A stretch of DNA of 64,000 bases from Neptunomonas japonica JAMM 1380. GTDB lineage: Bacteria; Pseudomonadota; Gammaproteobacteria; Pseudomonadales; Balneatricaceae. Below are positions 29,494-45,987 of this stretch, in pieces; position 1 is the first letter of the stretch, and every line of letters starts with the position of its first letter. The notes beneath the pieces are model-generated. The model did not search any database, was not told where the DNA came from, and was given only the letters and a program-made list of their open reading frames with translations. The stretch covers positions 992,001 to 1,056,000 of the forward strand of contig NZ_AP014546.1 of the NCBI RefSeq assembly GCF_016592555.1, given 5' to 3'. The position numbers and the translations under genes are program-made.

Positions 29494-30075
29494 ATGGCTC
29501 GTACGTTTATTAAATCAATTCTGATTGCGTTTATTGTTTACAGTGGAAGTGCAGTTGCTTCTATTATTCCTTTTTCACAAAACCCTAATGTATCGCCTGG
29601 TGCGACTGTATACAGTGCTGCAGCTGGGTTTCCTACGCCGCATAATGTAGCAGGGCCTGCTGCTGGTGGCCATTTTGGTGCTGGTGATGAGGTCCGTATT
29701 TCTGAGATGCTCGACTTGCAAGCGCTAGCGCAAGCAACGGATGAAACGTTCGGAAGTGCTTCTACATTCCAATGGCTTGTTTTTTGGTATGAAGATCCTT
29801 TTGCTGCAACGTATTCGCATTTTAATAATATCGAAATTCTTTGGAGTGACATTAATGCGTGGCAAGCAGGTGGCCAGCAAGCTTTAGCTTTTTGGACAGA
29901 TGCCTATACGCTGCCAACAGCTGGTAACTGGATTGTAGATACTTATTTTGAAGGTGTATTGACTGCTACATCAGCACGCTTTGATGTACCTGAGCCCTCT
30001 AGCCTGTTGTTGCTGTCGTTAGGCTTGTTGGGTGTTGCTGCGCGTAAGCGTATATCGCGTGAGATGACTGCATAA
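29494..30075 (+). CDS. PEP-CTERM sorting domain-containing secreted protein
   Basis: A 193-residue exported protein. It has an N-terminal signal peptide (cleavage probably after SAVA, about residue 23) and a C-terminal PEP-CTERM tripartite signal: VPEPSS, a hydrophobic run LLLLSLGLLGVAA, then basic RKR. Such tails are processed by exosortase in EPS-producing Gram-negative bacteria. The middle part is small and rich in aromatic and small residues, with no recognised domain and no cysteines. A strong TGGAGG site precedes ATG 29494, and a perfect terminator follows. No exosortase gene is seen in the window. Its function is unknown; cell-surface or EPS association is inferred from the tail. Confidence 0.88.
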   Translation: MARTFIKSILIAFIVYSGSAVASIIPFSQNPNVSPGATVYSAAAGFPTPHNVAGPAAGGHFGAGDEVRISEMLDLQALAQATDETFGSASTFQWLVFWYEDPFAATYSHFNNIEILWSDINAWQAGGQQALAFWTDAYTLPTAGNWIVDTYFEGVLTATSARFDVPEPSSLLLLSLGLLGVAARKRISREMTA

Positions 30076-31577: not shown

Positions 31578-32921
31578 TTAACGATTAACGACAGTGTTAG
31601 GCCCTTTTTGTGGCTTAAAATATAAAGAGATCCAGCCAAAAGCCAGTATCAACATAAAGGACGCAGCGTTAGCGGGTATTTGCAAATTAAAGTCGACAGT
31701 TGCATGTAGCCCCATGGCGATCATCGACATTAAGCAGCCGAATGAGAGCCCCCTCATCAGAGGGCTTTTACGCATCCATTGGGCTTTAAGGGCAATAATA
31801 AAAGTTAATAAGGCTGCAATAAGTAGCGGGGTAAAGCCAATGAGACCACGCTCAGTCAAAAACTCTAAATAGTCGTTATGCGCATGGTCAATAAATAGTG
31901 TTATATCTTTTTTTCGTACTTCAGGAAAGGCGGTATAAAAAGTACCGGAGCCTGTTCCCATTAACAGGTTATTGTTAAAAAGCTCAAGGCTATAAAGATC
32001 TACCTCGTCGCGGCTCTCTCTTGTTGCGGTTGTTTGTTCTAGCCTGTCTACCACTTTCTCGATACCAAAAAACGTACCCACAATAAAAACATCAATAACA
32101 AGTAGGCTGGTTAGCAGAATAATGGTTGAGCGCGAAGCACGACGCCCTAATAGCAAAGCAAGAGCGCCGGTAATCATCATGGCAGCAAAAAATGAAGTGT
32201 TGCCCATTCGAGAGTGTGTGAGCACTAAGGCAATGACCATCATAACAAGGGTGATGCGTAGTAGTGCCTTGGTGCCTAGTAAGGCGTTCATCCAGCGCCG
32301 TAGGCGGTTGCGCCAGTTGCCTGATGCAGTTGATTTAAGTGTAGCGATCATCATACCTAAGCCAATAGAAAGGCAAATAACTAGGTAGCCAGCGAGGTGG
32401 TTTCTGTTTATGAATGTGCCAGTCGCAACGCCGTTGTAACTGTCTTTATGGGTGAAGAAACCAAACTCGGTACCGGTTAAGGTCATTAGGCTGCCATAAA
32501 TTGCTTGGAATAGGCCGCATGCAATTAATGTATAGGCGGCAAGTTTTATACGTTTGTGGCTATTAAGAAGCGCCAGAGACAGTGTGAAAAAAGCAATTAA
32601 AGCAAAGCTGAGCAGTGTTTGCTGTTGTGATCTAAAGGGCTCTACAGAAAGCGATAAACCGGGTATTGCCTGGAACGTGCTGGCAAACGCAGCCAAAAGA
32701 AGTAGGGCAATGGCTGGCCATGCTTTGCGCAATGGTCTGGAGCTACTAACGCGCTGATGCAGAAAAAGAAAACACCAGTATGAAAGTAGTAAGAGGGCGG
32801 CCGCACTAAAAAAAGCTAATGACCACAATCTATTGCTGCCCATCGGGAGAGGAAGCCAAACCAATAACCCTAAAAAAGCGTAAAAAATAGAGTTGTCTGC
32901 TGTGGAGTGGGGTTTGTCCAT
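31578..32921 (-). CDS. O-antigen ligase / Wzy_C family membrane protein
   Basis: A 447-residue integral membrane protein with roughly 11-12 hydrophobic segments and a large periplasmic loop with the Wzy_C-type motif HAHNDYLEFLTERGLIG (about residues 341-357). Members of this family either join lipid-linked O-antigen to lipid A (WaaL), polymerise repeat units (Wzy), or attach glycans to proteins; sequence alone does not separate these. It shares the minus strand with ugd. Because the Wzy gene at 35933 is frameshifted in this sequence, this protein could be the working polymerase; that is a hypothesis. Confidence 0.85.
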   Translation of the reverse strand: MDKPHSTADNSIFYAFLGLLVWLPLPMGSNRLWSLAFFSAAALLLLSYWCFLFLHQRVSSSRPLRKAWPAIALLLLAAFASTFQAIPGLSLSVEPFRSQQQTLLSFALIAFFTLSLALLNSHKRIKLAAYTLIACGLFQAIYGSLMTLTGTEFGFFTHKDSYNGVATGTFINRNHLAGYLVICLSIGLGMMIATLKSTASGNWRNRLRRWMNALLGTKALLRITLVMMVIALVLTHSRMGNTSFFAAMMITGALALLLGRRASRSTIILLTSLLVIDVFIVGTFFGIEKVVDRLEQTTATRESRDEVDLYSLELFNNNLLMGTGSGTFYTAFPEVRKKDITLFIDHAHNDYLEFLTERGLIGFTPLLIAALLTFIIALKAQWMRKSPLMRGLSFGCLMSMIAMGLHATVDFNLQIPANAASFMLILAFGWISLYFKPQKGPNTVVNR

Positions 32922-33595: not shown

Positions 33596-33859
33596 TGCAT
33601 GCTCCTTGCAAAATCAATTAAATGAAAGATGAGTCGGAATGCTAACAAGCTTATAACCTAGATGCAAAGAAAAACTGATCAAATGTTGCACAGCAGCAAC
33701 CGAGTGCATTATGATAGCGCTAATTGAAAACATTTGTTTAATTTAGACTGTCGCTTAAAATAGCATAGTACAAATATTAAATATTTGTTGATACTGAAAT
33801 AGAGTTGTCACGCTGCTTCAGTAAAATGGAATAATTAGAAGTTTTTAGGGATGAGAGCG

Positions 33860-35305
33860 ATGGATTTTAGTCTACATCAATCACCTGCGCCATCTATACA
33901 GCGTGGCCGTCGTTTATTGCGAAATCACCAAACGCTTATGTTTTGGATACAGTTGTTCGCAGACCTGTTTATGGTTACAGGCTCCTTAGCTGTACTCACT
34001 TTTGTTAAATTGCAAAGCATCCCTGCTCACTATCGTTTTTTAGCCATTATTACGGTATTGGCACTTTTTGCCATTTACTCTGCGCGTGGTGTGTATCGAC
34101 GCTCGTCTAGCCAGTGGCGCCTAATGGGGCGTGTAACAGCGGCGTGGTGTTTTTTGTTATTAATTTTATTGTTGTTAGGCTTTTTAACAAAAACTACAGA
34201 GATGTTCTCGCGCCAAGTATTAATTTTATGGGTGCCAACGGCGCTTGGGCTGCAATTGTTTAACCATCTCTGCTTAAATAAAGCGATTAAGCATTACAAC
34301 GACCGCTCAACACAACAGCTCCCTGTTTTAGTCATTGGCGATGGAGCCATCGCGCAGCACCTTGCTAAAAGCCTAATGGAAAATCGTTGGTTGCCAGATC
34401 GTGTTATGGGCATGATAGTGGCTAATAAAGAAACAGCAGACGCTGCGTCGGTAGCGGCCATGCCAGCTCCGATACTGGGTACGCTACTTGAATTAAGATC
34501 AATCATTAAAGAAAGCGGAATCCGGCGTATCTATGTTGCACTGCCGCTAGGTGCATCACAACAAATTGAAAACTTGCATATTGATCTACTGGATATGAAC
34601 GTAGATGTAATATGGGTACCCGATATTTTTGCGCTCAATCTACTTAACCACTCCGTAAGAGAGGTGGCCGGTGTGCCGCTTATATCGCTGAACGAAAGCC
34701 CGCTTACCTCATCGCGAGTGCCTATTGTACTTAAGGGCATAATGGACAGGGTTATTGCTGTGATTGCTTTAGTAGCGTTGTCACCATTATTGCTTGGTAT
34801 TGCTATCGCGGTTAAGCGCTCATCACCCGGGCCGGTATTTTTTAAACAGCAGCGCCATGGGTTTGATGGCAAAATTATCGAGATCTATAAATTCCGCAGT
34901 ATGAAACTCCATGCCGATGCAGATGTAGTGCAGCAAGCAACAAAAGAAGACCCGCGTGTCACTAAAATAGGCAGCTTTATACGTAAATCATCTATCGATG
35001 AGCTACCACAGCTATTTAACGTATTAAATGGAACAATGTCGCTTGTTGGGCCAAGGCCTCATGCGGTATCGCATAATGATTATTACTCAGGCAAGATTGA
35101 TGCCTACCTTGCGCGGCATCGCATTAAACCGGGTATTACGGGGTTAGCACAGGTAAAAGGCTACCGTGGCGAGACTGAAACACTTGATAAAATGCAAAAG
35201 CGCGTAGAGTTTGATTTAGCATATATCAATAATTGGTCATTGGCGTTGGATATTAATATATTAATGAAAACACCGTTGAGCCTAGTGTCAAAAAATATCT
35301 ACTAA
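33860..35305 (+). CDS. undecaprenyl-phosphate sugar-1-phosphate transferase (WcaJ-like)
   Basis: A polyisoprenyl-phosphate hexose-1-phosphate transferase that loads the first sugar, usually glucose-1-P, on undecaprenyl phosphate and so starts repeat-unit synthesis. The 481-residue protein has four N-terminal membrane segments, a Rossmann-like central part (VLVIGDGAIAQHLAKSL), a re-entrant helix near residue 295, and the catalytic domain with IYKFRSM, SSIDELPQLFNVL and MSLVGPRP. ATG 33860 has AGGG at good spacing; ATG 33851 sits directly behind AGGG and is less likely. The 264-base AT-rich gap before it must hold the promoter of the biosynthetic run. Confidence 0.93.
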   Translation: MDFSLHQSPAPSIQRGRRLLRNHQTLMFWIQLFADLFMVTGSLAVLTFVKLQSIPAHYRFLAIITVLALFAIYSARGVYRRSSSQWRLMGRVTAAWCFLLLILLLLGFLTKTTEMFSRQVLILWVPTALGLQLFNHLCLNKAIKHYNDRSTQQLPVLVIGDGAIAQHLAKSLMENRWLPDRVMGMIVANKETADAASVAAMPAPILGTLLELRSIIKESGIRRIYVALPLGASQQIENLHIDLLDMNVDVIWVPDIFALNLLNHSVREVAGVPLISLNESPLTSSRVPIVLKGIMDRVIAVIALVALSPLLLGIAIAVKRSSPGPVFFKQQRHGFDGKIIEIYKFRSMKLHADADVVQQATKEDPRVTKIGSFIRKSSIDELPQLFNVLNGTMSLVGPRPHAVSHNDYYSGKIDAYLARHRIKPGITGLAQVKGYRGETETLDKMQKRVEFDLAYINNWSLALDINILMKTPLSLVSKNIY

Positions 35306-35384
35306 GAAGTTACGATAAAATAGTCAAGGCCTTTAATAAATATGTTATTTTTTTGTTAGTGTTTTTTTCGTTTCTTTTTTATGT

Positions 35385-35933
35385 ATGACTGTATTCGCTT
35401 ATTTGAATAAAGGGATTTTTTATAGCTATTGTATTTCTGCTAGTGAGAGAAGAGGAATAAAAAAGATAAATTACCTGACAGTTGTTAGCTTGATACTGCT
35501 GGATAGGTCCATGTTAGCTTTATTTCTATATAGATTGAATTATAGATTATCAAAACCCTTGATTGGCCGGGTTATAACAAATTTAGGATATTTTTTAACT
35601 GGAATCGAAATATACTATAATGCAAAAATTGGAGAAAAAGTCCAAATATGGCATGGGCAGGGAACTGTAATAGGACAGAATAGCGTAATAGGTGAGGGCT
35701 GTTTAATTCTACACCAAGTAACATTAGGAAGTGGGTTTGTTGTTATTGAAAGTGGAGTTAAAATCGGTTGCGGTGCAAAGATATTAGGCAATGTTACAAT
35801 TGGTAAATCTTCCGTAATATCCGCAAATGCAGTCGTTACGAAAAATATTGATAAAAGAAGCTTAGTAAAAAGTAATGGCGATGTTGTTATTTTAGAACTA
35901 GAGAAAGAAGTAGTTTTTGGAACAAAACGATAA
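35385..35933 (+). CDS. serine acetyltransferase-like (CysE/LbH) acyltransferase
   Basis: A 182-residue protein whose C-terminal two thirds is a left-handed beta-helix with hexapeptide repeats: TGIEIYYNAKIGEKVQIWHGQGTVIGQNSVIGEG, LHQVTLGS, then GAKILGNVTIGKSSVISANAVV. The set of motifs is that of the serine acetyltransferase group, which in polysaccharide loci usually O-acetylates a sugar. Unlike housekeeping CysE the N-terminal helical domain is short. The start is uncertain: ATG 35385 lacks a clear ribosome site, and ATG 35511 (MLALFLYRLNYRL) is a plausible alternative. Its stop overlaps the next start (TAATG). Confidence 0.82.
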   Translation: MTVFAYLNKGIFYSYCISASERRGIKKINYLTVVSLILLDRSMLALFLYRLNYRLSKPLIGRVITNLGYFLTGIEIYYNAKIGEKVQIWHGQGTVIGQNSVIGEGCLILHQVTLGSGFVVIESGVKIGCGAKILGNVTIGKSSVISANAVVTKNIDKRSLVKSNGDVVILELEKEVVFGTKR

Positions 35934-37071
35934 TGAGGTTCGTTAGCTTTTCATGTAAATACATATACCTAATATACTTAGTTATTTTTGCCGTATTAGG
36001 ACGTGCATTAAGAGAATATGATTTAGATTACGCAGCCGCTATGCTTTTAATAATCTTAAGTATAGCTTTTCTTCCTTTTTTCAAAAACAAATTCACTAGC
36101 TATGACCTTCTTTGGATACCTGCATTCTTTATTGCTATTTGGTATTGCATTGTATATTCAGTAGATGTTGGTCTGCCAGCAGACCCTATTATTCAATCTT
36201 TAATTTTTTTATGCCAATAACTAGCTTAATGACAAGGAATATAAAACTAAAATCATTTCAAGCATCAAAACTTTGTTTCTTTTTACTTTTGCTGTGTTTG
36301 ATTGGAATGCTCCCATTTTATAAAGAGTTAGCATTTGCATTGACTAGCTCACATGAAAGGGCCCGATTTCATACGTATTTTTCAATATCAATATGCTTTG
36401 TTATGTTCGCTTTTTTGCTGTCAGGGTGGGTTTCTGGAAAAGTTAAAGTAGTATCTTCATTAATAATAATAATAATATTTTCGGGCGCTGCAGCACATCG
36501 GTCAATGTACTTGGCTTTTTGTGTGCAAATTTTATATTGGATTACAATTAATGGCAATATTAAAGCTCTTTATCGACCTTTGGCCGCAGTTTTTATTGGT
36601 TTCATTGTTATTATCTTCACAGATTTTGGTAATGTGATAATGAGTAAGTTTATTGATTCGTATTCTGGAGGTGATGGTAACACGGAGTCTAGATTGTTTT
36701 ATTATAAATCAATATTTATAAATTCGTTTGAAGATTTTTTTGGTGTTGGTTTTGGTGAATACTTCAAATATGGTTTAGATTCTAAAGGAGAGTCGGTATC
36801 CTATGCTCTGCAGCATAATTCATACTTAAGTTATTTGTATTTTTTAGGATGGGTTCCATTTGTCTTTGTAGTGTATTTTACTTTTAAATTATTTTCTAGA
36901 GGAGTAAATGTAAATGCTGACTCTAAAGTATATTTGACAGTGCTTGTTGGTATGAGCTTTTTTTCTATATTAAATGTTTACTTAGAACAGCCAACGTTTG
37001 GTATTCTTTACTGGGCGGTTTTTGGGATTGTTCTGGGTGATTTTAGGCAGTATAAGGCAATAAGGCATTAG
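35933..37071 (+). pseudogene. Wzy-like O-antigen/EPS polymerase, split by a -1 frameshift
   Basis: A polytopic membrane protein in two frames. The first frame (35933-36220) encodes about three membrane segments and stops after PADPIIQSLIFLCQ. The second frame continues as FMPITSLMTRNIKLKS through about eight more segments to 37071, with the family-like periplasmic LQHNSYLSYLYFLGW motif. Joining at the T-run 36204-36210 gives about 379 residues, normal for Wzy. The in-phase heptamer T TTT TTA (36205-36211) is a classical -1 slippery site, with a stop 6 bases later. Options are a real mutation, phase variation, programmed frameshifting, or a homopolymer sequencing error. It overlaps the preceding gene by one base. 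Placement between acetyltransferase and Wzx supports the polymerase role. Confidence 0.78.
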
Positions 37072-37133
37072 CTTTTTCAGTTTTCTAAGTGATATATCAC
37101 ATTTTAATAAGTGTATGATTCAATAGGGTGTTT

Positions 37134-38312
37134 ATGCTGAAAAGTTTTTTTAACTTTTATTTTTTATCATCAATTGGAAATGCTTTTATATCCTTTATTG
37201 TGATTGTTTATTTTTCGTATTATGCAACTAATAAAGAATATGTTCAGCTAGGTGTGTTTTCAGCGGTTCTGGGAATGATGCCTTCGATAATAGGAATGCA
37301 TACAAGAAGTTATTTTATCAGGCAGTCATCCACTAACGATAAAGTCGAAATTGAAGATGTTGATGTTTTAGTATCGACTTTTATATGGATGATTGTATCA
37401 GTAGCTTTTCTAACGTTCGTGCTGATTTTTATTGATCTTTCATTTCTTATTGAAAAAGAGCTAAGTTGGATTGTTTTAATTGTTGGTGTTGGGCAGTGGT
37501 GTCATCTAACAATAGTGGCTGTGTCCCATTCAAAGAATAATGCACGACGCTATTTTTTATTTACAATATATGCGTCAATTGTGTCTGGGTTAGGAGTTAT
37601 TGTACTAGGGCAAATTCATGCTTTGGTTTGGCAAGATCGGGCTTATGCACTTATGTTCGGTTATCTGTTATCAATTATTATTTTTATAACTTGGTATCGT
37701 GAAAGTATAGTAAAAAAAATACGTATTCCGGCCGTTAATTATAAAATTATTAAGTATTCAATTCCTCTTATTCCCTACAGTTTATCAGTATCAGCATTGA
37801 TATTTTTTGAGCGACAAGTCGTAGCTCAAAATTTTGACTCTAGTGTTGCTGCTAGTTATTTGTCACAAGTTCAAATAGTTTTAATTTTTTCAATATTTTT
37901 GGATTCTTTATATAAAAAAATCACCCCTGTTTATTTTTCAACGGGAAATATTGCGTGCTTATATAAAACATCGTTGGTTGCTGTGTGTGCATTTTTTATT
38001 TTTTATTTTATATCACCTTGGATATTTCATTTTGTTTTCCCTGCAACAATGTATTTTAATTCAAATCTTATGTTTTTTATGCTTGTTTCATCTGCAGTAA
38101 TATATATTCTTAAGTTAATATCATTGATTTTCAATTATAAAAGCAAAAACATTTTTCTTTCAGCAGTAGTCATTTTTTCAAATATTTTTACTGTAATGGG
38201 TTTATATTTTTATTCATATGGTTTAGGTGTTATCTCAATACCAATTATTATTTCTGTTTGTAATTTTTTAGCAGTTTTAGTTCTGACTTTTTTTATTTGG
38301 AGACATAAATGA
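37134..38312 (+). CDS. Wzx-like polysaccharide flippase
   Basis: A 392-residue protein with about 12 predicted membrane helices, of the MATE/PST flippase type that moves undecaprenyl-linked repeat units across the inner membrane. Supporting segments are the N-terminal FYFLSSIGNAFISFIV, and IIKYSIPLIPYSLSVSALIFFERQVV at the start of the second half, a hallmark region for this group. ATG 37134 has an AGGG site; a GTG two codons earlier is less likely. The end overlaps the pyruvyl transferase start (ATGA). It is very AT-rich, with A8 and T runs that remain in frame. Confidence 0.85.
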   Translation: MLKSFFNFYFLSSIGNAFISFIVIVYFSYYATNKEYVQLGVFSAVLGMMPSIIGMHTRSYFIRQSSTNDKVEIEDVDVLVSTFIWMIVSVAFLTFVLIFIDLSFLIEKELSWIVLIVGVGQWCHLTIVAVSHSKNNARRYFLFTIYASIVSGLGVIVLGQIHALVWQDRAYALMFGYLLSIIIFITWYRESIVKKIRIPAVNYKIIKYSIPLIPYSLSVSALIFFERQVVAQNFDSSVAASYLSQVQIVLIFSIFLDSLYKKITPVYFSTGNIACLYKTSLVAVCAFFIFYFISPWIFHFVFPATMYFNSNLMFFMLVSSAVIYILKLISLIFNYKSKNIFLSAVVIFSNIFTVMGLYFYSYGLGVISIPIIISVCNFLAVLVLTFFIWRHK

Positions 38313-39444
38313 CAAGGTTGTTGCATGTTGGATTAGCAGAGTGCTCAAATATCGGGGATCAAGCTATAACTGATTGTATAAGGTCAATGCTGTCTGATAT
38401 GAGCGATTATGAATATAAGTTTTTTAGGATTAACTTTAATCATGCCACTTCTAAAAGTGATGGTGTGGTTGAAAAAAATAAAATTAAGGAGGTTTTAAGA
38501 AGTATTCGGGTAATAAAGATTTTATACGATATTTCTTTGCCAGTTATTAAGTGGCGATATTATAAGTCTTTTTACAACGAAGCCAGAAAGTCAGAAAAAA
38601 TACTTATTGGCGGTGGTAATCTCTTGATGGATATAGACTTTATATTTCCTTTACATTTATTGATATTAGTCTTATTAAGTCGTTTGGCAGGAGCAGAGCC
38701 GGCGTTTTTCTTGGCAGGTATTGGTCCTTTAAATAGTAAGTTTGGTAGGTTTTTGGCTAAAAGAATTGCGCTTAGACTTAAATTTTCTATAGTTAGAGAT
38801 GAGCTTTCAAAATCAATATTAGAGAAATACAACCCTAAATTAAAAGTATCTGTTTTGCCTGATCCTGTATTTTTTGCCGAGGAACTTTTAAAGAGTGCAA
38901 AAAAAAATAATAAGACAGATAAATATAGAGTGTTAATTTCAGTCTTTCCTTATGGTAGTAAAAGAGTTTCTCATAATAAGTCGGATAGCGATTCTGATTT
39001 TTACTATTCATTTGTCGCTGATATAGTTAACTACTTCAAAAACAAAAAAATCATAATGTTGATATAGATTTTCTCGTTACGGATATCGTAAGGGATTATG
39101 AGGTAGCACATTACCTAAGAAAGAGTTGTGGAGGTGGTGGAGAAATTATAGCTCCTACTAACTCATTAGAGCTATTAAGTGTAATTAATAGGTACAATTT
39201 TGTTGTAGCAACACGAATGCACGCGGCTATTGGAGCTGCTTGTCTAGGTGTTCCTTTTGTTGCTTTAGCTTGGCAAGATAAATTTAAATATTGTTTTAAA
39301 GAAGTTCAGTTGGAACATCGTATATGTTCACTTAATGAGAAAGACGCTCTTGAAAAATTTGAATCTATAATGAAGATAGAAAAATATTCTCCGGTCATGA
39401 GTTTGAATCAATATTTAAATGATATAGAGAGACTTTTGTCATGA
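38309..39444 (+). pseudogene. polysaccharide pyruvyl transferase, split by a -1 frameshift
   Basis: Pyruvyl transferases add ketal-linked pyruvate to polysaccharide sugars. Frame one (38309-39067) covers residues 1-252, with LHVGLAECSNIGDQAITD, ILIGGGNLLMD and AFFLAGIGPLNSKFG motifs, and stops after NKKIIMLI. The missing C-terminus is in the -1 frame: KNHNVDIDFLVTDIV, then VVATRMHAAIGAACLGVPFV, the conserved C-terminal motif, to 39444. The switch falls at the A-run 39044-39050; joining gives about 378 residues. The phase gives C AAA AAA as a possible slip site. It overlaps its neighbours by ATGA at both ends, which argues that the full-length frame was the ancestral unit. Mutation, phase variation or sequencing error are all possible. 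Confidence 0.82.
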
Positions 39445-40511
39445 GAAAATTGCTTTTTGTTGGGCAGTTCCCGCCACCGAAACATGGTGTTTCTATTATC
39501 AATGAACTGCTTTGTAGTGAGCTAAAAAGTAGTTATGAAGTATCTAAATATGATTATAGATTTAGTAATGATTTAAAAGATATAGGTGGCAGGCTCTTAA
39601 GTAAATTAATTGTTTATATTAAACATTGTTTTTCCTTGTTAAGAATTATTTTTTTTTCTGATTCATTAGATGTTATTTATTTCACTCCGAATGTTAGAGG
39701 AGGTGTTTTTTTTAGAGATTTAATTGTTGTTTTAATTTTAAAATTATCTCGCGCTAAGATATTTTTACATTTACATGGTTTAGGGGTTGCTGATAGATCA
39801 TCGAGTAGAGTTTGGAGGGCTTTATATTTCGTCATGTTCTCGAGAACTTATATCGTTCATGTTAGTAAGAGAGTGGTGCTAGATGAATTTAAATATCATT
39901 ATGGTACAAAGGGACGGTTTTATTTAAATAACTCTGTGGACCTATCTTTACCTGAACAAATAGCTTCAAAAAAAGTAGATGGTTTTTATGGAAAAACTAT
40001 AGTACATATGTCTAATTTTCGCCCATCAAAAGGTATTATGGATGTTTTAAAAGCTTATAAAGAGTTAAAGAAAGAGATGCCTTGCTGTTTGAAAATGGTA
40101 GGCAGTTTTACCTCTAATGATTTTGAAGCTGAAGTTTTTAGCTATATCCACAAAGAAGAAATTGAAGATGTTGAGTTTCTAGGTTTTCTCGAAACAGATG
40201 AAAAAAATAAAGTTCTAGCTATGGCTGATTTGTTTTTGTATCCAAGTTATGACGATTCTTTTGGTTTAGTTGTTTTGGAGGCTCAAGTTTTAGGAGCACC
40301 AGTTGTAGCATATGATATTGGTTCTATGAAACAAATTGTAAATCCTAAGCAAGGTTTTGTTGCTGAATTAGGGGATTTTTACTCACTTCTTTCTGCTGGG
40401 AAAAAAATATTAAATTCTGATTATAAATCTATTGATTGGGATTTCCTAAAAGACTACGACATAAAAAACTATACGAGTAGACTTGTTGATATTTTGGAGA
40501 GTAGTAAGTGA
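39441..40511 (+). CDS. GT4-family glycosyltransferase
   Basis: A 356-residue GT-B glycosyltransferase. The N-terminal domain starts KLLFVGQFPPPKHGVS, typical for GT4; the C-terminal donor-binding domain has VHMSNFRPSKGIMDVLKAYK, VEFLGFL and the ExxxxE-type segment YPSYDDSFGLVVLEAQVLGAPVV. Donor and acceptor sugars cannot be told from sequence. ATG 39441 overlaps the pyruvyl transferase stop by four bases, and its own stop overlaps the next start (GTGA). It is the only complete glycosyltransferase in the AT-rich core, so the repeat unit may be short, or further transferases are encoded elsewhere. Confidence 0.9.
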   Translation: MRKLLFVGQFPPPKHGVSIINELLCSELKSSYEVSKYDYRFSNDLKDIGGRLLSKLIVYIKHCFSLLRIIFFSDSLDVIYFTPNVRGGVFFRDLIVVLILKLSRAKIFLHLHGLGVADRSSSRVWRALYFVMFSRTYIVHVSKRVVLDEFKYHYGTKGRFYLNNSVDLSLPEQIASKKVDGFYGKTIVHMSNFRPSKGIMDVLKAYKELKKEMPCCLKMVGSFTSNDFEAEVFSYIHKEEIEDVEFLGFLETDEKNKVLAMADLFLYPSYDDSFGLVVLEAQVLGAPVVAYDIGSMKQIVNPKQGFVAELGDFYSLLSAGKKILNSDYKSIDWDFLKDYDIKNYTSRLVDILESSK

Positions 40512-41845
40512 AGAAGTTTTTATTACTATATGCAAAAAAAATTGTAAGTAGGCTTCCTGCATTTGTCGGTACGAGGCTAGCCGGTATTCCATTTCAGTAT
40601 AGATTAGGAAATGATTATATTAAATACAATAAAGGCCTAGAGAAAAAAGCTAGTGAGCAAGATGTTTTTTTAAGCATGAAAAATTTAACGATACATGCTT
40701 ATGAAAATGTTTATTTTTATCGAAAGTTTTATGATAACCATGGCTTTAACCCCAATTCATTATCAGAATTTAAAGATCTTTGTAATATACCAATATTAAG
40801 AAAGTCGGATCTACGTGGTTATTCACTAGAGCAACGATCTGTTGTCGGTTCCGTCGGAATACCCACTAATACTGGAGGCACAAGCGGGCAGCCATTGAGC
40901 TTACTTATTGATTCTGAAGCATATGCTCGTGAATGGGCTCATATGCATAAAATATGGTCTAGGTTGGGATATACAACAAATGATGTAAAGTTAACTTTAC
41001 GGGGCATGAATATTGGAGATGAGCCTATTAGATATAATTTCATTCACAATGAGTTCCAGGTTAATGCTTACTGTGACTTTGATAAAGTAGTTAATGCTCT
41101 AGAATTAATAGTTAAGAAATATTCTATAAGTTATCTTCATGGCTACCCTAGCGCTATTTATGAATTCCTGCTTAAAGTATCTCAATCATATCCAGATGTA
41201 ATGACTGTTTTGAAGTCTTCTGTAAAAGGTGTTTTTTTGGGATCAGAACTCCCTGCTGGCATATATCGTAATTTTATAGAAGAGAGTTTAGGCGTTAAGG
41301 CTATATCTTGGTATGGACACTCTGAAATGTGTGTTCTGGCTGGAGAAATGGAAGAGAAGGATGTGTATTTTCCATTTCATAGTTATGGTTACGCTGAGGC
41401 ATGTAAAGTAGAAGAAAATTATCATTTGATCGGTTCTACTCTCCACAACTGGAGTAGTCCGCTTATTAGATATGACACCGAAGATTTGATTGAACCAGTT
41501 TCAGTGCAAAATGGTTTCCTTTCTTCTTTTAAGATTAAGCAGGGACGTATTGGTGAATTTGTTGAAGATTTTAATAGTAGAAAAATTTCTTTGACTGCTC
41601 TTATATTTGGAAGGCACCATAAAATTTTCGAATATGCTGACTTTATTCAAGTTAGCCAATTTGAACAAGGAGAGCTAACTATCTGGATAACATCTTCTAA
41701 AGACAATATATCATGGTCGAGCTACTTTGATTCTAAAGAGATTGCTATGAACATTGAATTTGTTGTTATTGATAAGCCTTTTAAAACCAGTGCTGGGAAG
41801 ACCCCTCTAATTGTAAATAAGCTCATTGAATTAGTTAATGATTAA
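40508..41845 (+). CDS. CapK / phenylacetate-CoA ligase-like protein
   Basis: A 445-residue member of the adenylate-forming superfamily related to PaaK and CapK. The nucleotide-binding segment is visible as TNTGGTSGQPLSLL (about residues 118-131), followed by the mid-domain segment GVFLGSELPAG and a substrate-region YGHSEMCVLAGEM. CapK-like proteins are common in capsule and EPS loci, where they are thought to activate or transfer an acyl group or amino acid for sugar modification; the substrate is unknown. Start is GTG 40508, overlapping the upstream stop. It is the last gene of the AT-rich core. Confidence 0.82.
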   Translation: MKKFLLLYAKKIVSRLPAFVGTRLAGIPFQYRLGNDYIKYNKGLEKKASEQDVFLSMKNLTIHAYENVYFYRKFYDNHGFNPNSLSEFKDLCNIPILRKSDLRGYSLEQRSVVGSVGIPTNTGGTSGQPLSLLIDSEAYAREWAHMHKIWSRLGYTTNDVKLTLRGMNIGDEPIRYNFIHNEFQVNAYCDFDKVVNALELIVKKYSISYLHGYPSAIYEFLLKVSQSYPDVMTVLKSSVKGVFLGSELPAGIYRNFIEESLGVKAISWYGHSEMCVLAGEMEEKDVYFPFHSYGYAEACKVEENYHLIGSTLHNWSSPLIRYDTEDLIEPVSVQNGFLSSFKIKQGRIGEFVEDFNSRKISLTALIFGRHHKIFEYADFIQVSQFEQGELTIWITSSKDNISWSSYFDSKEIAMNIEFVVIDKPFKTSAGKTPLIVNKLIELVND

Positions 41846-41869
41846 CAGTATTCCAAGGATAGTAATAGG

Positions 41870-44044
41870 ATGAAACAAGTAACACAAACTTTACGGACGG
41901 GTGTAGTCGAAGTAAATGAAGTACCTGTACCTACTTTAAATGATAAGTTCGTATTAGTTAGAAACACTGCTTCTGTTATTAGTGCTGGGACTGAGAAAAC
42001 TAAAATCGATATGGGAAAAAAAAGCCTTTTGCAAAAAGCAAAAGCTCGCCCAGATTTGGTTAAACAAGTCCTGCAAAAAATTAAAACAGAAGGCTTACAA
42101 AAAACCATACAAACGGTTAAATCCAGATTAGACTCTCCTTCACCGTTAGGCTATAGCTGCGCGGGTGAAGTTATTGCTGCAGGTGGTTTGGTCGAAGGTA
42201 TTCAGCCGGGCGATCGCGTTGCATGTGGCGGGGCTGATTATGCAAATCATGCTGAGTTTGTGGCCATTCCTAAAAATCTTGTAGTTAAAATACCTGCTAA
42301 TGTTACAGATGAAGAAGCAGCATTTACTACGGTGGGTTCCATCGCGATGCAAGGGGTTCGTTTAGCCGATCCTAAACTTGGTGAGACTTTCCTTATTTTA
42401 GGGCTTGGTTTATTAGGCCAAATCGCTGTCCAATTATTAAGAGCTAATGGATGTCGAGTTATAGCAACTGATTTAGATAGTGATTTAGTTCAGCGAGCCG
42501 AAGGCTTTGGCGCAATTGGTGCTTATCCAGGGTCTGATGTTGATGGATTGTGTAAAGAGTTAACTGCAGGCCATGGCGTTGATGGTGTTCTTGTATGTGC
42601 AGGGACTTCAAGTAACCAGCCAATAGAACTATGTGGTGCTTGCACTCGTGAGAAGGGCCGTGTCGTTGTTGTTGGCGCTGTTCGTATGGATATACCTCGA
42701 GAAGATTATTTCAAGAAAGAAATAAACGTTGTTATTTCACGCTCATACGGTCCTGGGCGTTATGATCCTTTTTATGAGGAAAACGGTAACGATTATCCTT
42801 TGGGTTACGTTCGCTTTACCGAACAACGCAATATGCAGTCTTTTCTTGAGCTGATTGCTGAAGAGAAAATGGATGTTAAATCCTTAATTTCTCATCGCTA
42901 TAACGTTGATGAGGCTGCAGAAGCTTATCAGTTAATTGAAGGTGCGAAAACAGAGCCTTACCTTGGTATCATTATGCAATACGATGCTAAAGCCTCCTCA
43001 CAGGTAGCGCTTTCGCGTATCTCTACTGCTAGTAAGCCTATTACATCAAGCAAAGTAGGTATTTCATTCTTTGGTGCAGGTAATTATGCGACAGCTAGTT
43101 TATTGCCGCCGCTAAAAGATGATTCTGATATTGAGCTTCGTGGTTTAGTGACCGCGAGTGGTCGTACAGCGCAAGGTGTTGCTAAGCAGTTTGGTTTTTC
43201 TTTTTGTGCAGGTGACTACGCAGAGCTATTAGAAAAAGATTCTGATGCCATTATGGTTGTTACACGACATGACACACATGCCGATTCAGTGAGTAGAGCG
43301 CTTGATGCGAATAAACATGTTTATGTTGAAAAACCACTAGCGTTAAATGTAGAAGAGTTGCAGATAGTTCAAGCTGCCAAGACGAAGTCTATGGCTACTG
43401 TTATGGTAGGTTTTAACCGCCGATTTGCCCCGTTGACTGTTGAAGCTATTAAGCACTTTGACACGGTTAAGTCTCCTTTAGTTGTTAATATTCGTATTAA
43501 TTCAGGGCAAATTCCTGCAGACCATTGGATTCAAGACCCAGAAGTTGGTGGCGGCAGAGTCATTGGCGAAGGGTGTCACTTTGTTGATCTTGCTTCAGCA
43601 TTAACACAAAGCAATCCTGTCAGTGTTTCTTGTATCGGTACAGCAAAAGCAGATAAGTCTGCGATGTTGAATGATAATGTTGTTATTACTTTAGCTTTCC
43701 AAAATGGCAGCATTGCGAACATCATCTACTGTGCTGATGGGTCAAAGGCGATGGCAAAAGAGTATGTCGAAGTTTTTGGTGGTGGTCGCAGTGCTATTAT
43801 TAAAGATTTCAAAGAGTTAGATTTATTTGCTGGTGATACTTCGGTTCAATCTACTAAACTCGGCGCTCAAGATAAAGGACAAAAAGCTATGCTCAAGTCT
43901 TGGCTTAAAGCGGTCAAAACTGGCAGTGAATGTATTGATCATTCGTGCCTGATGTCTAATAGCTTAGCGACGATCCTTGCTGTCGAATCGCTAGCATCTG
44001 GGTCTGCAATGAAAGTTGACTTGTCTATTTTAAACAATGAATAA
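41870..44044 (+). CDS. bidomain oxidoreductase: MDR alcohol dehydrogenase + Gfo/Idh/MocA
   Basis: A 724-residue fusion of two NAD(P)-dependent oxidoreductases. Residues about 1-370 are a medium-chain dehydrogenase (LGYSCAGEVIAAG, GDRVACGGADYANHAEF, coenzyme motif GLGLLGQIAVQLL). Residues about 385-710 are a Gfo/Idh/MocA oxidoreductase (ISFFGAGNYATASLL, VEKPLALNVEEL, GFNRRFAPL, GEGCHFVDLASAL). Such fusions occur in polysaccharide loci, often beside heparinase-like or six-hairpin proteins, and probably modify a nucleotide-sugar by oxidation and reduction; the reaction is not established. It returns to the base composition of the flank. ATG 41870 lies 24 bases after capK; the end overlaps the next gene by 8 bases. 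Confidence 0.88.
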   Translation: MKQVTQTLRTGVVEVNEVPVPTLNDKFVLVRNTASVISAGTEKTKIDMGKKSLLQKAKARPDLVKQVLQKIKTEGLQKTIQTVKSRLDSPSPLGYSCAGEVIAAGGLVEGIQPGDRVACGGADYANHAEFVAIPKNLVVKIPANVTDEEAAFTTVGSIAMQGVRLADPKLGETFLILGLGLLGQIAVQLLRANGCRVIATDLDSDLVQRAEGFGAIGAYPGSDVDGLCKELTAGHGVDGVLVCAGTSSNQPIELCGACTREKGRVVVVGAVRMDIPREDYFKKEINVVISRSYGPGRYDPFYEENGNDYPLGYVRFTEQRNMQSFLELIAEEKMDVKSLISHRYNVDEAAEAYQLIEGAKTEPYLGIIMQYDAKASSQVALSRISTASKPITSSKVGISFFGAGNYATASLLPPLKDDSDIELRGLVTASGRTAQGVAKQFGFSFCAGDYAELLEKDSDAIMVVTRHDTHADSVSRALDANKHVYVEKPLALNVEELQIVQAAKTKSMATVMVGFNRRFAPLTVEAIKHFDTVKSPLVVNIRINSGQIPADHWIQDPEVGGGRVIGEGCHFVDLASALTQSNPVSVSCIGTAKADKSAMLNDNVVITLAFQNGSIANIIYCADGSKAMAKEYVEVFGGGRSAIIKDFKELDLFAGDTSVQSTKLGAQDKGQKAMLKSWLKAVKTGSECIDHSCLMSNSLATILAVESLASGSAMKVDLSILNNE

Positions 44045-45242
44045 ATCATTTTCGGTAGAGATAATTAAAAATCAGATGTTGGACGGAGCTCGCAAAGATA
44101 GTTTTGCGGGCTACGATCCTTTCGATGGTTTGAATAGTAAGCTTTTCAATGTGATGCCTGTATTACGCAAAGGCATTGCAGGCCTTGCTTGGATTCAACT
44201 ATTTAAACAATCTCCCTTTAATCTTCGTCCGATATTGGGTGTGGCTAAAAAGAGAAACCCTAAAGGTATCGGTTTATTTATTCTTGGTTTATTACAAGAT
44301 TATAAACGAACATCTGATGCGTCTTATCTAGATGAAGCTGTCGCTCTTGCTGATTGGCTACTGACTCAGCAATGTGACCAGGATAAGTGGCAGCATGCTT
44401 GTTGGGGCTACCATTTTGATTGGAAGGCGCGTGCTTTCTATGTGCCACAAGGTAAGCCGAACGTTATTACTACTATTTATGTGTCTCAAGCTTTGTTTGC
44501 CTTAGCGAATATCCTTGAGCAGCAAGGCTCGGGTGAGGCAGAAAAGTTTCGTGAGCCAGCGTTAGACTCCGCTAGTTTTATCGTTAACACGCTTTACACC
44601 GAAGCAGACGGTCGATCTTTCTTTGCTTATATTCCAGGTGAGACAGCCTTTGTTCATAACGCTAGCCTTTGGGCTGCTGCGTGGGTTGCTGTTGTTGGTC
44701 GTTACACTCAAAACACGCTTTATTGTGATATGGCTTTAAAGGCTGCTCGTCAATCGGCTGGTGAGCAAGCAGAAGATGGATCGTGGGTGTATGGGGCGCG
44801 TCATCACCACCAGTTTATAGATGGTTTCCATACGGGGTATAACCTTGAGGCACTTGATCTGATTCGTAAAACACTCGATGTTTCTGAGTTCGATGAGCCC
44901 ATCGAAAAAGGGTTAGCGTATTACAAAACCCATTTTTTTGATGAAGATGGCACGGCTAAATATTACAACAACAACCGCTACCCGCTTGATATGCACTCCG
45001 TTGCCCAAGCTGTGATCACGCTATTAAAAGTGGGCGGTACACAAGAAGATTTTGATCTGGCTGAAAAGGTCATTGGTTGGTCTATTAATGAGCTTTACCT
45101 TTCTGATAAAAAGCGATTCGTCTATCAAAAAACAAAACGCTTTGTAAATAAGATTAACTATACACGGTGGACCCAGGCTTGGGTTTATTATTCTTTTTCA
45201 TACTTCAATCAAATGCAGGCTAAACGCAATGAATCGTATTAA
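44037..45242 (+). CDS. six-hairpin (alpha/alpha-barrel)-like EPS protein of unknown reaction
   Basis: A 401-residue protein rich in paired helices with repeated aromatic and His motifs (WQHACWGYHFDW, YNLEALDLI, DMHSVAQAVITLL, YTRWTQAWVYYSF). This pattern resembles the alpha/alpha six-hairpin fold of uronyl epimerases, hydrolases and lyases. No signal peptide is visible, so a cytoplasmic role is likely. Database entries for similar proteins sometimes carry an unrelated enzyme name, so I make no functional claim. It is translationally coupled to the bidomain oxidoreductase (8-base overlap) and to the WecG-like gene (14-base overlap); the tight coupling suggests a shared sugar-modification step. 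Confidence 0.7.
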   Translation: MNKSFSVEIIKNQMLDGARKDSFAGYDPFDGLNSKLFNVMPVLRKGIAGLAWIQLFKQSPFNLRPILGVAKKRNPKGIGLFILGLLQDYKRTSDASYLDEAVALADWLLTQQCDQDKWQHACWGYHFDWKARAFYVPQGKPNVITTIYVSQALFALANILEQQGSGEAEKFREPALDSASFIVNTLYTEADGRSFFAYIPGETAFVHNASLWAAAWVAVVGRYTQNTLYCDMALKAARQSAGEQAEDGSWVYGARHHHQFIDGFHTGYNLEALDLIRKTLDVSEFDEPIEKGLAYYKTHFFDEDGTAKYYNNNRYPLDMHSVAQAVITLLKVGGTQEDFDLAEKVIGWSINELYLSDKKRFVYQKTKRFVNKINYTRWTQAWVYYSFSYFNQMQAKRNESY

Positions 45243-45987
45243 TTTTCTGGGTAGCCCTATGGATTCCGGCAGCATGTCGGATACGGTTAGTGCGATTTCT
45301 GAAAGAATATTAAGCCAGCAGTTTACCCAGCATGTAGTCGTTAATGTTGCCAAGCTCGTTAATATGCGTAAAGACCCAGAGCTCGCAAAGTCTGTTACCG
45401 AATGCGATATCATTAATATTGATGGTATGGGTGTTGTATGGGGTGCGCGTTTTTTAGGCCATAACGTTGGCGAGCGGGTTTCGGGTGTTGATCTGTTTGC
45501 CGAGCTCAACGCTATGGCTGAGCGAGAAGGTTTTCCGGTGTTTTATTTGGGTGCAAAAGAAGAGGTTGTCACCAAAACCGGCGAAGTGATGCAAGCTCAG
45601 CATCCTCAGTTGACTATTGCAGGCACGCATCACGGTTACTTTTGGGATGATGAGCAGGCGGTGGTTGAGCAAATTAAAGCGTCTGGTGCACGCTTGTTAT
45701 TTGTAGCGATTACATCACCTAAAAAAGAGAATTTTATCAACCGTTGGAAAGATGAGCTCGGTGTAGATTTTGTTATGGGTGTAGGCGGTACCTTTGATGT
45801 GGTGGCCGGTAAGGTGAGCAGGGCGCCCGTCTGGATGCAAAAATATGGGCTAGAATGGTTGTATCGCGTTATTCAAGAGCCAAGGCGTATGTGGAAGCGT
45901 TACTTAGTGACTAATTCCCAGTTTGCTTGGTTACTTGTTCAGGCTAAGTTAGGGTTTTTGAAAGATACTAAGCATAATAACGTTTAA
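45229..45987 (+). CDS. WecG/TagA/CpsF family glycosyltransferase (GT26)
   Basis: A 252-residue glycosyltransferase of family GT26, typified by WecG (UDP-ManNAcA transferase) and TagA (UDP-ManNAc transferase). Motifs are VNVAKLVNMRKDPEL, IINIDGMGVVWGARFLG with the conserved Asp, ERVSGVDLF, and MGVGGTFDVVAGKVSRAP. Given wecB and wecC at the left end of the locus, ManNAcA is a likely donor sugar. ATG 45229 lies inside the end of the preceding gene. The C-terminal basic and hydrophobic part (RRMWKRYLVTNSQFAWLL) probably associates with the membrane. Confidence 0.9.
   Translation: MNRINFLGSPMDSGSMSDTVSAISERILSQQFTQHVVVNVAKLVNMRKDPELAKSVTECDIINIDGMGVVWGARFLGHNVGERVSGVDLFAELNAMAEREGFPVFYLGAKEEVVTKTGEVMQAQHPQLTIAGTHHGYFWDDEQAVVEQIKASGARLLFVAITSPKKENFINRWKDELGVDFVMGVGGTFDVVAGKVSRAPVWMQKYGLEWLYRVIQEPRRMWKRYLVTNSQFAWLLVQAKLGFLKDTKHNNV

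What the first reader, a model, noticed from the sequence alone, without database searches (positions are those of the whole stretch)
36204..36211. Wzy polymerase interrupted at a canonical -1 slippery heptamer
The polymerase reads in one frame to 36220 and continues one base back from the T7 run onward, with membrane helices continuing across the join. The zero-frame codons ATT TTT TTA place the heptamer T TTT TTA exactly in phase, with a stop 6 bases later. This is the same type of slip site used in -1 programmed frameshifting. It could also be a T7/T8 phase-variable switch turning polymerisation on and off, a fixed mutation, or a base missed in a homopolymer. No clear downstream stimulatory hairpin is seen, which weakens the programmed model.
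Basis: partly seen in the sequence, partly recalled or inferred. Interest (0 to 1): 0.72.

Follow-up and report, generated by a model that had tools for sequence, protein, structure and literature searches.

The report
Sugar-polymerase gene broken by homopolymer slip
A gene for a membrane enzyme that probably strings sugar units into a surface polysaccharide is interrupted by a one-letter shift inside a run of seven Ts; the ribosome-slippage motif seen there comes automatically with that kind of mutation, so this is most likely an ordinary, recent loss of the gene rather than programmed frameshifting.

Summary
ORF1 (35933-36220, 95 aa) and ORF2 (-1 frame, open 36112-37071) are two pieces of one Wzy_C-type membrane protein. 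ORF1 matches residues 4-91 and ORF2 residues 91-374 of an intact 376-aa homologue, so the break lies in the T7 run 36204-36210. The in-phase T TTT TTA heptamer is real but uninformative. A one-base loss in codons reading xxT TTT TTT ATG always creates it, and 2 of 6 intact homologues have Phe-Phe-Met there. It lies in phase at 14 sites in 11 of 53 window ORFs and in 28 of 287 ORFs of a 400-kb sample. There is no SD-like stimulator or unusual hairpin, and U UUU UUA is not among the motifs reported efficient in E. coli. The one homologue with readable DNA lacks it at the site. The pieces keep 115 of 117 residues invariant in six homologues, so the break is recent or the product still matters. 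I favour a recent homopolymer indel that switches the gene off apart from perhaps trace slippage, as reported for wzy in phage-selected Pseudomonas. Tract-length switching and base-calling error remain open; programmed -1 frameshifting is unlikely (about 5%).

The parts
35933..36220 (+). ORF1: N-terminal piece (95 aa) of the Wzy_C-type protein; start overlaps the stop of the preceding gene (TAATG, 35931-35935)
   Evidence: 49% identity to residues 4-91 of intact P0003; keeps 12 of 13 residues invariant in six homologues, the one difference being the start Met, offset in the alignment
36112..37071 (+). ORF2: frame holding the C-terminal piece; homologous sequence starts at the T run (about 36205)
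   Evidence: PF04932 Wzy_C 36.4 bits, cut-off 31.7; 60% identity to P0003 residues 91-374; keeps 103 of 104 invariant residues
36204..36210 (+). T7 run where the frame is lost
36205..36211 (+). T TTT TTA heptamer in phase with ORF1
36211..36220 (+). ATGCCAATAA: ORF2-frame ATG overlapping the ORF1 stop; possible but unsupported reinitiation start
   Evidence: none of five SD-like patterns in 36175-36205
33851..35305 (+). WcaJ-type initiating sugar transferase of the same locus
   Evidence: TIGR03023 478.2 bits, cut-off 410.75
35385..35933 (+). hexapeptide acetyltransferase just upstream
   Evidence: PF00132 54.6 bits
38309..39067 (+). polysaccharide pyruvyl transferase downstream in the same direction
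   Evidence: PF04230 63.6 bits

Best explanation
The locus makes a surface or exopolysaccharide, and the split gene is its probable Wzy-type polymerase. A one-nucleotide change of tract length in the T run, inside the codons of about the fourth predicted membrane segment, recently put the gene out of frame. Translation ends three codons after TTT of the tract, leaving a 95-aa stub, so polymerisation by this enzyme is lost or nearly lost. The T TTT TTA heptamer arose from the indel itself. It may let a small fraction of ribosomes slip into the downstream frame, but it is not a dedicated device. Shown: the split, its place, uninterrupted homologues, lack of further decay, ordinariness of the heptamer. 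Inferred: the ancestral codons, recency, loss of function, and polymerase rather than ligase activity.
For: Both pieces align end to end to uninterrupted 376-387-aa homologues and meet at one Phe. No second lesion; 115 of 117 invariant residues kept. Heptamer common in other ORFs. No SD-like element, no special hairpin. The site lies inside a hydrophobic segment in 5 of 6 homologues, which argues against a working two-piece protein. Precedent: in P. aeruginosa, phage-resistant wzy loss-of-function mutations are mainly single-base indels in homopolymeric stretches (PMC10714927, passages).
Against: No reads, no second strain and no expression data, so recency and loss of function are unproven. 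The codons of the close homologues were not seen. The lack of decay equally fits a product still made by slippage or by a subpopulation, or a wrong base call. In-phase TTTTTTA and runs of 6 or more A/T are mildly in excess over synonymous shuffles in this locus (9 against 5.6, 39 of 500 shuffles reach it; 49 against 39.7, 15 of 1000), and TTTTTTA on both strands of the window too (57 against 31.7).
Confidence: 0.6

Rival explanations
1. Phase-variable switch: tract length changes often by slipped-strand mispairing, turning polymerisation on and off; the assembly caught the off state.
For: Frame break exactly in a homopolymer; surface-polysaccharide gene; both pieces otherwise intact. Runs of 7 or more A/T in the locus are slightly above synonymous shuffles (20 against 14.9; 51 of 1000 reach it).
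Against: Seven Ts is short and ordinary here: 30 other A/T tracts of 7 or more lie in the 53 window ORFs, up to A9 and T9. Tracts of 8 or more and 9 or more in the locus do not exceed synonymous shuffles (6 against 4.6, 299 of 1000 reach it; 2 against 0.9, 227 of 1000). Homologue L008 has no T run at the site, though it has T7 and T8 runs elsewhere in the gene.
Confidence: 0.2
2. Base-calling or assembly error in a homopolymer; the real gene is intact.
For: Frame break in a homopolymer; no sign of decay in either piece; reads not available.
Against: In 864 kb of this genome, 88 of 111 same-genus proteins with a hit aligned in one frame over at least 85% of their length, across 24 A/T tracts of 7 or more, and no frame break was detected among the 111, nor among 180 at looser limits. 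The method is only about half sensitive: with the six homologues as queries it flagged the known break with 3 of 6. Single contig, 99.91% complete.
Confidence: 0.15
3. Programmed -1 ribosomal frameshifting at T TTT TTA makes a controlled, low amount of full-length polymerase.
For: Heptamer exactly in phase; the -1 product would be colinear with the homologues; no decay in either piece. Known or suspected frameshift genes do not necessarily use efficient motifs (PMC4066793, passage).
Against: The heptamer is a necessary by-product of the indel and common in other ORFs; no stimulator; not in L008. The efficient motifs ending in UUN in E. coli are H_HH.U_UU.Y, whereas D_DD.U_UU.H, which covers U UUU UUA, is efficient in the eukaryotic assay (PMC4066793, passage). 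[quoted passage not shown] coli (PMC5009743, passage).
Confidence: 0.05

Closest known systems
wzy loss-of-function indels in homopolymer stretches in phage-resistant P. aeruginosa (PMC10714927, passages)
   Same: Single-base indel in a homopolymer of a Wzy gene
   Different: There selected in the laboratory with known parents; here one genome, ancestor unseen
Reversible excision of the wzy locus in Salmonella Typhimurium (PMC12074656, listing and start of abstract only)
   Same: Loss of the polymerase linked to phage exposure
   Different: Excision of a locus, not a homopolymer frame change
HIV-type U UUU UUA programmed -1 site (PMC4373837, listing and start of abstract)
   Same: Identical heptamer, in phase
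   Different: HIV has a stem-loop stimulator; here none found, no conservation seen, and protein relatives are uninterrupted
Frameshift mutations partly suppressed by slippage (rpoB in E. coli, PMC7022156; oligoA tract in chloroplast atpB, PMC8254509; passages)
   Same: A slip-prone sequence at or near the mutation could give some full-length product
   Different: Those were measured; here nothing shows product
PF04932 Wzy_C / O-antigen ligase family
   Same: ORF2 scores over the family cut-off
   Different: Coding region split; polymerase versus ligase not decided by this model

Membership tests
Programmed -1 frameshift gene | In-phase X XXY YYZ heptamer before the zero-frame stop | tested here: met
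   T TTT TTA 36205-36211
Programmed -1 frameshift gene | Stimulator: SD-like motif upstream or structure downstream | tested here: not met
   No GAGG/GGAG/AGGA/GGNGG/AGGKG in 36175-36205; hairpin z -0.52, -0.40, +0.50 downstream. Pseudoknots were not tested.
Programmed -1 frameshift gene | Site and split conserved in relatives | tested here: not met
   6 of 6 close protein homologues are single proteins of 376-387 aa, their DNA not seen; DNA readable for one distant homologue (L008): TTG ATG TTC TTT ATT CCT, no heptamer
Programmed -1 frameshift gene | Measured frameshift product | not testable with these tools
   Needs a reporter or proteomics
Phase-variable contingency gene | Tract-length heterogeneity between cells or strains | not testable with these tools
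   No reads; no other strain of the species found
Phase-variable contingency gene | Unusually long tract for the local composition | tested here: not met
   This tract has 7 bases; tracts of 8 or more and 9 or more in the locus are not in excess over synonymous shuffles, tracts of 7 or more only slightly
Wzy_C (PF04932) protein | Profile score over the gathering cut-off | tested here: met
   36.4 bits against 31.7 for ORF2; ORF1 alone has no Pfam match
Wzy polymerase (as against ligase) | Sits in a polysaccharide locus with initiating transferase, glycosyltransferases and flippase | tested here: inconclusive
   WcaJ, acetyltransferase, pyruvyl transferase, Glycos_transf_1 and WecG-type transferases present; the flippase candidate 37128-38312 matches no family

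The most novel reading that the evidence does not exclude
The heptamer is kept by selection as a low-efficiency valve: ribosomes slip at T TTT TTA often enough to give a small, dose-limited amount of full-length polymerase, so chain growth is throttled rather than lost, possibly combined with tract-length switching.
Probability: 0.05. Interest if true: 0.6.

Novelty: new member of a known kind. Interest (0 to 1): 0.15.

Why it matters
Mainly as a caution: a canonical slippery heptamer at a frame break is not independent evidence of recoding when the break lies in a T run of Phe-Phe-Met codons, because the indel creates the motif. If product were nevertheless made, it would be a clean natural case of leaky rescue of a surface-polymer gene.

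Tried and rejected
Second lesion or gradual decay: rejected, one frame break only and 115 of 117 invariant residues kept. Two-piece functional protein or reinitiation at ATG 36211: not favoured, no SD-like motif, site inside a hydrophobic segment in 5 of 6 homologues. The upstream hairpin in the fold of 36165-36300 lies in codons for VGLPADP, which P0003 also has, so it needs no separate explanation.

Comparison at DNA level: genome-contig scans with ORF2 and with alignment A2 confirmed no relative, viral contigs none, plasmids by tblastn with P0003 none. With A2, 2 of 116 family genomes matched (the own one and G105, locus L008), 1 of 390 of the order and 1 of 369 of the class, the own genome each time (the samples overlap). 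ORF2's homologous part was found in 1 of 8 genomes of the genus, the own one. Naming the organism: 16S against plasmid records gave about 88% over the full length at the top of the list (Halomonas, Vibrio, Pseudoalteromonas); 8 of 554 records have a better-than-90% place, none of them among the 15 listed, so probably over a part only. A text search for the genome length found nothing relevant. No solved structure matches A2 or the 394-aa ORF. Literature: one search had no hits; the listings (15 of 19; 4 of 4; 3 of 3) show no paper on a wzy gene with a programmed -1 site. Papers were seen as listings, abstracts or passages only, none in full.

Full report
What is there. The window is part of a 4,095,481-base single-contig genome of an unnamed bacterium. 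Its 16S rRNA is about 88% identical over its full length to the best-covering plasmid records, of Halomonas, Vibrio and Pseudoalteromonas, so I take it for a gammaproteobacterium without being able to name it. Between a WcaJ-type sugar transferase (33851-35305), an acetyltransferase (35385-35933), a pyruvyl transferase (38309-39067) and a Glycos_transf_1 protein (39441-40511) lie two overlapping ORFs. These are 35933-36220 (95 aa) and, one base back, a frame open over 36112-37071. The second matches PF04932 Wzy_C at 36.4 bits, cut-off 31.7; the first matches no Pfam family. The genes 35385-39067 have 30-33% G+C against 43% for the window, which is usual for such loci (recalled).

A database search with ORF2 found six uninterrupted homologues of 376-387 aa besides the window's own protein. 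Compared piece by piece, ORF1 matches residues 4-91 of P0003 at 49% identity and ORF2 residues 91-374 at 60%. The two matches share a single Phe, in the T7 run 36204-36210. The zero-frame codons are ATT TTT TTA TGC CAA TAA, so T TTT TTA at 36205-36211 is in phase and the stop is two codons later.

Why the heptamer is weak evidence. First, it is implied by the lesion: if codons reading xxT TTT TTT ATG lose one base from the run, the result is always an in-phase T TTT TTA. P0002 and P0003 have Phe-Phe-Met at this place; P0004 and P0005 have FFL, P0006 FFI and P0007 FLI. Their codons were not seen, so the ancestral codons are inferred. Second, it is common: 14 in-phase sites in 11 of 53 hand-picked window ORFs (98 ORFs of 80 aa or more were listed; count), and 32 sites in 28 of 287 ORFs of at least 150 aa in a 400-kb sample of the same genome. 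TTTTTTA occurs 57 times on both strands of the window against 31.7 in shuffles. Third, stimulators are missing: none of five SD-like motifs in 36175-36205, downstream folds at z -0.52, -0.40 and +0.50, and -0.06 for a stretch spanning the site; pseudoknots were not tested. Fourth, the one homologue whose DNA I could read, the distant L008 in G105 (200.7 bits to the A2 profile), has TTG ATG TTC TTT ATT CCT at the site, with neither heptamer nor T run there, though T7 and T8 runs occur elsewhere in that gene. Fifth, in E. coli the efficient motifs ending in UUN are H_HH.U_UU.Y, while D_DD.U_UU.H, which covers U UUU UUA, is efficient in the eukaryotic assay (PMC4066793, abstract and passages). 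U_UU.U_UU.A is also absent from that paper's list of 18 motifs that are under-represented and give over 0.10% without stimulators. No single value for it was found in the main text. [quoted passage not shown] Against this, PMC4066793 also says that frameshift genes do not necessarily use efficient motifs.

Age and effect. Of residues invariant in the six homologues, ORF1 keeps 12 of 13 (the exception is the start Met, offset in the alignment) and ORF2 103 of 104. There is no second stop or shift. So either the lesion is young, or product is still made, or the sequence is wrong. By a plain hydropathy scan the site falls inside a predicted membrane segment in 5 of 6 homologues (not in P0002), which makes two separate half-proteins an unlikely way to work. 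The ORF2-frame ATG at 36211 overlaps the ORF1 stop but has no SD-like motif before it.

Sequence error. As a control I compared 649 ORFs from 800 kb of a same-genus genome (G002) with 864 kb of this genome, window included. 111 had a hit at 40% identity or more, 88 of these aligned in a single frame over at least 85% of their length, 23 were partial (several cut by stretch ends), and no frame break was detected; 24 A/T tracts of 7 or more lie inside the 88. A first run on 464 kb gave 52 of 63 and no break; looser limits gave 113 of 180 and no break. As a positive control the six homologues were run the same way: the known break was flagged with 3 of 6 queries, so the test is only about half sensitive. 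Error is therefore not frequent, but one wrong tract cannot be excluded.

Switching. The tract is short. 30 other A/T tracts of 7 or more lie in the 53 window ORFs, up to A9 (38899) and T9 (39649) in ORFs that stay open. In 11 ORFs or pieces of the locus (33851-45987), tracts of 8 or more (6 against 4.6; 299 of 1000 shuffles reach it) and 9 or more (2 against 0.9; 227 of 1000) are not in excess over synonymous shuffles. Runs of 6 or more (49 against 39.7; 15 of 1000) and of 7 or more (20 against 14.9; 51 of 1000) are mildly so, as is the in-phase heptamer (9 against 5.6; 39 of 500). No second strain was found in which the tract could be compared.

Mechanism and verdict. The best account is a recent one-base homopolymer indel that truncates the polymerase. 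Phage-resistant P. aeruginosa shows the same event type: there, wzy loss of function is mainly by single-base indels in homopolymeric stretches (PMC10714927, discussion passage). Trace full-length product by slippage is possible: an rpoB frameshift in E. coli is suppressed at 5% on a heptanucleotide (PMC7022156, abstract passage), and chloroplast atpB indels in an oligoA tract are partly corrected (PMC8254509, passages; in its reporter test the single-A and double-A deletion constructs were not effectively corrected). Nothing shows it here. I put a fixed or recent indel at 0.60, switching at 0.20, sequence error at 0.15 and programmed frameshifting at 0.05; the checks did not move these.

Limits. 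PF04932 does not separate polymerases from ligases; calling it Wzy rests on the locus. A second Wzy_C ORF lies at 31578-32921 on the minus strand and three more matches elsewhere in the genome, so another enzyme might cover for this one.

Noticed in passing
window 31578-32921 (-): A second, uninterrupted Wzy_C-family ORF (447 aa, 64.9 bits) lies about 3 kb upstream of the split one on the other strand; it could be a ligase or a backup polymerase.
   Followed up: partly
window 38899-38907 and 39649-39657: A9 and T9 tracts lie inside the pyruvyl transferase and Glycos_transf_1 ORFs downstream, both open; longer than the finding's T7, though not in excess over synonymous shuffles.
   Followed up: partly
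window 37128-38312 (+): 394-aa ORF directly after the split gene, at the place of a flippase, matches no Pfam, NCBIfam or PDB entry at the limits used.
   Followed up: partly
window 36112-37071 and P0002-P0010: This polymerase type looks rare: 2 of 116 family genomes including the own one, only the own genome among 390 of the order and 369 of the class, and nine other proteins in a 5.8-billion-protein collection, where only 8000 candidates were scored.
   Followed up: partly
window 29494-30075 (+): A PEP-CTERM protein lies near the polysaccharide genes, suggesting an exosortase-linked system.
   Followed up: no
window 35931-35935: TAATG overlap: the preceding acetyltransferase stop shares a base with the ORF1 start, suggesting coupled translation.
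   Followed up: no
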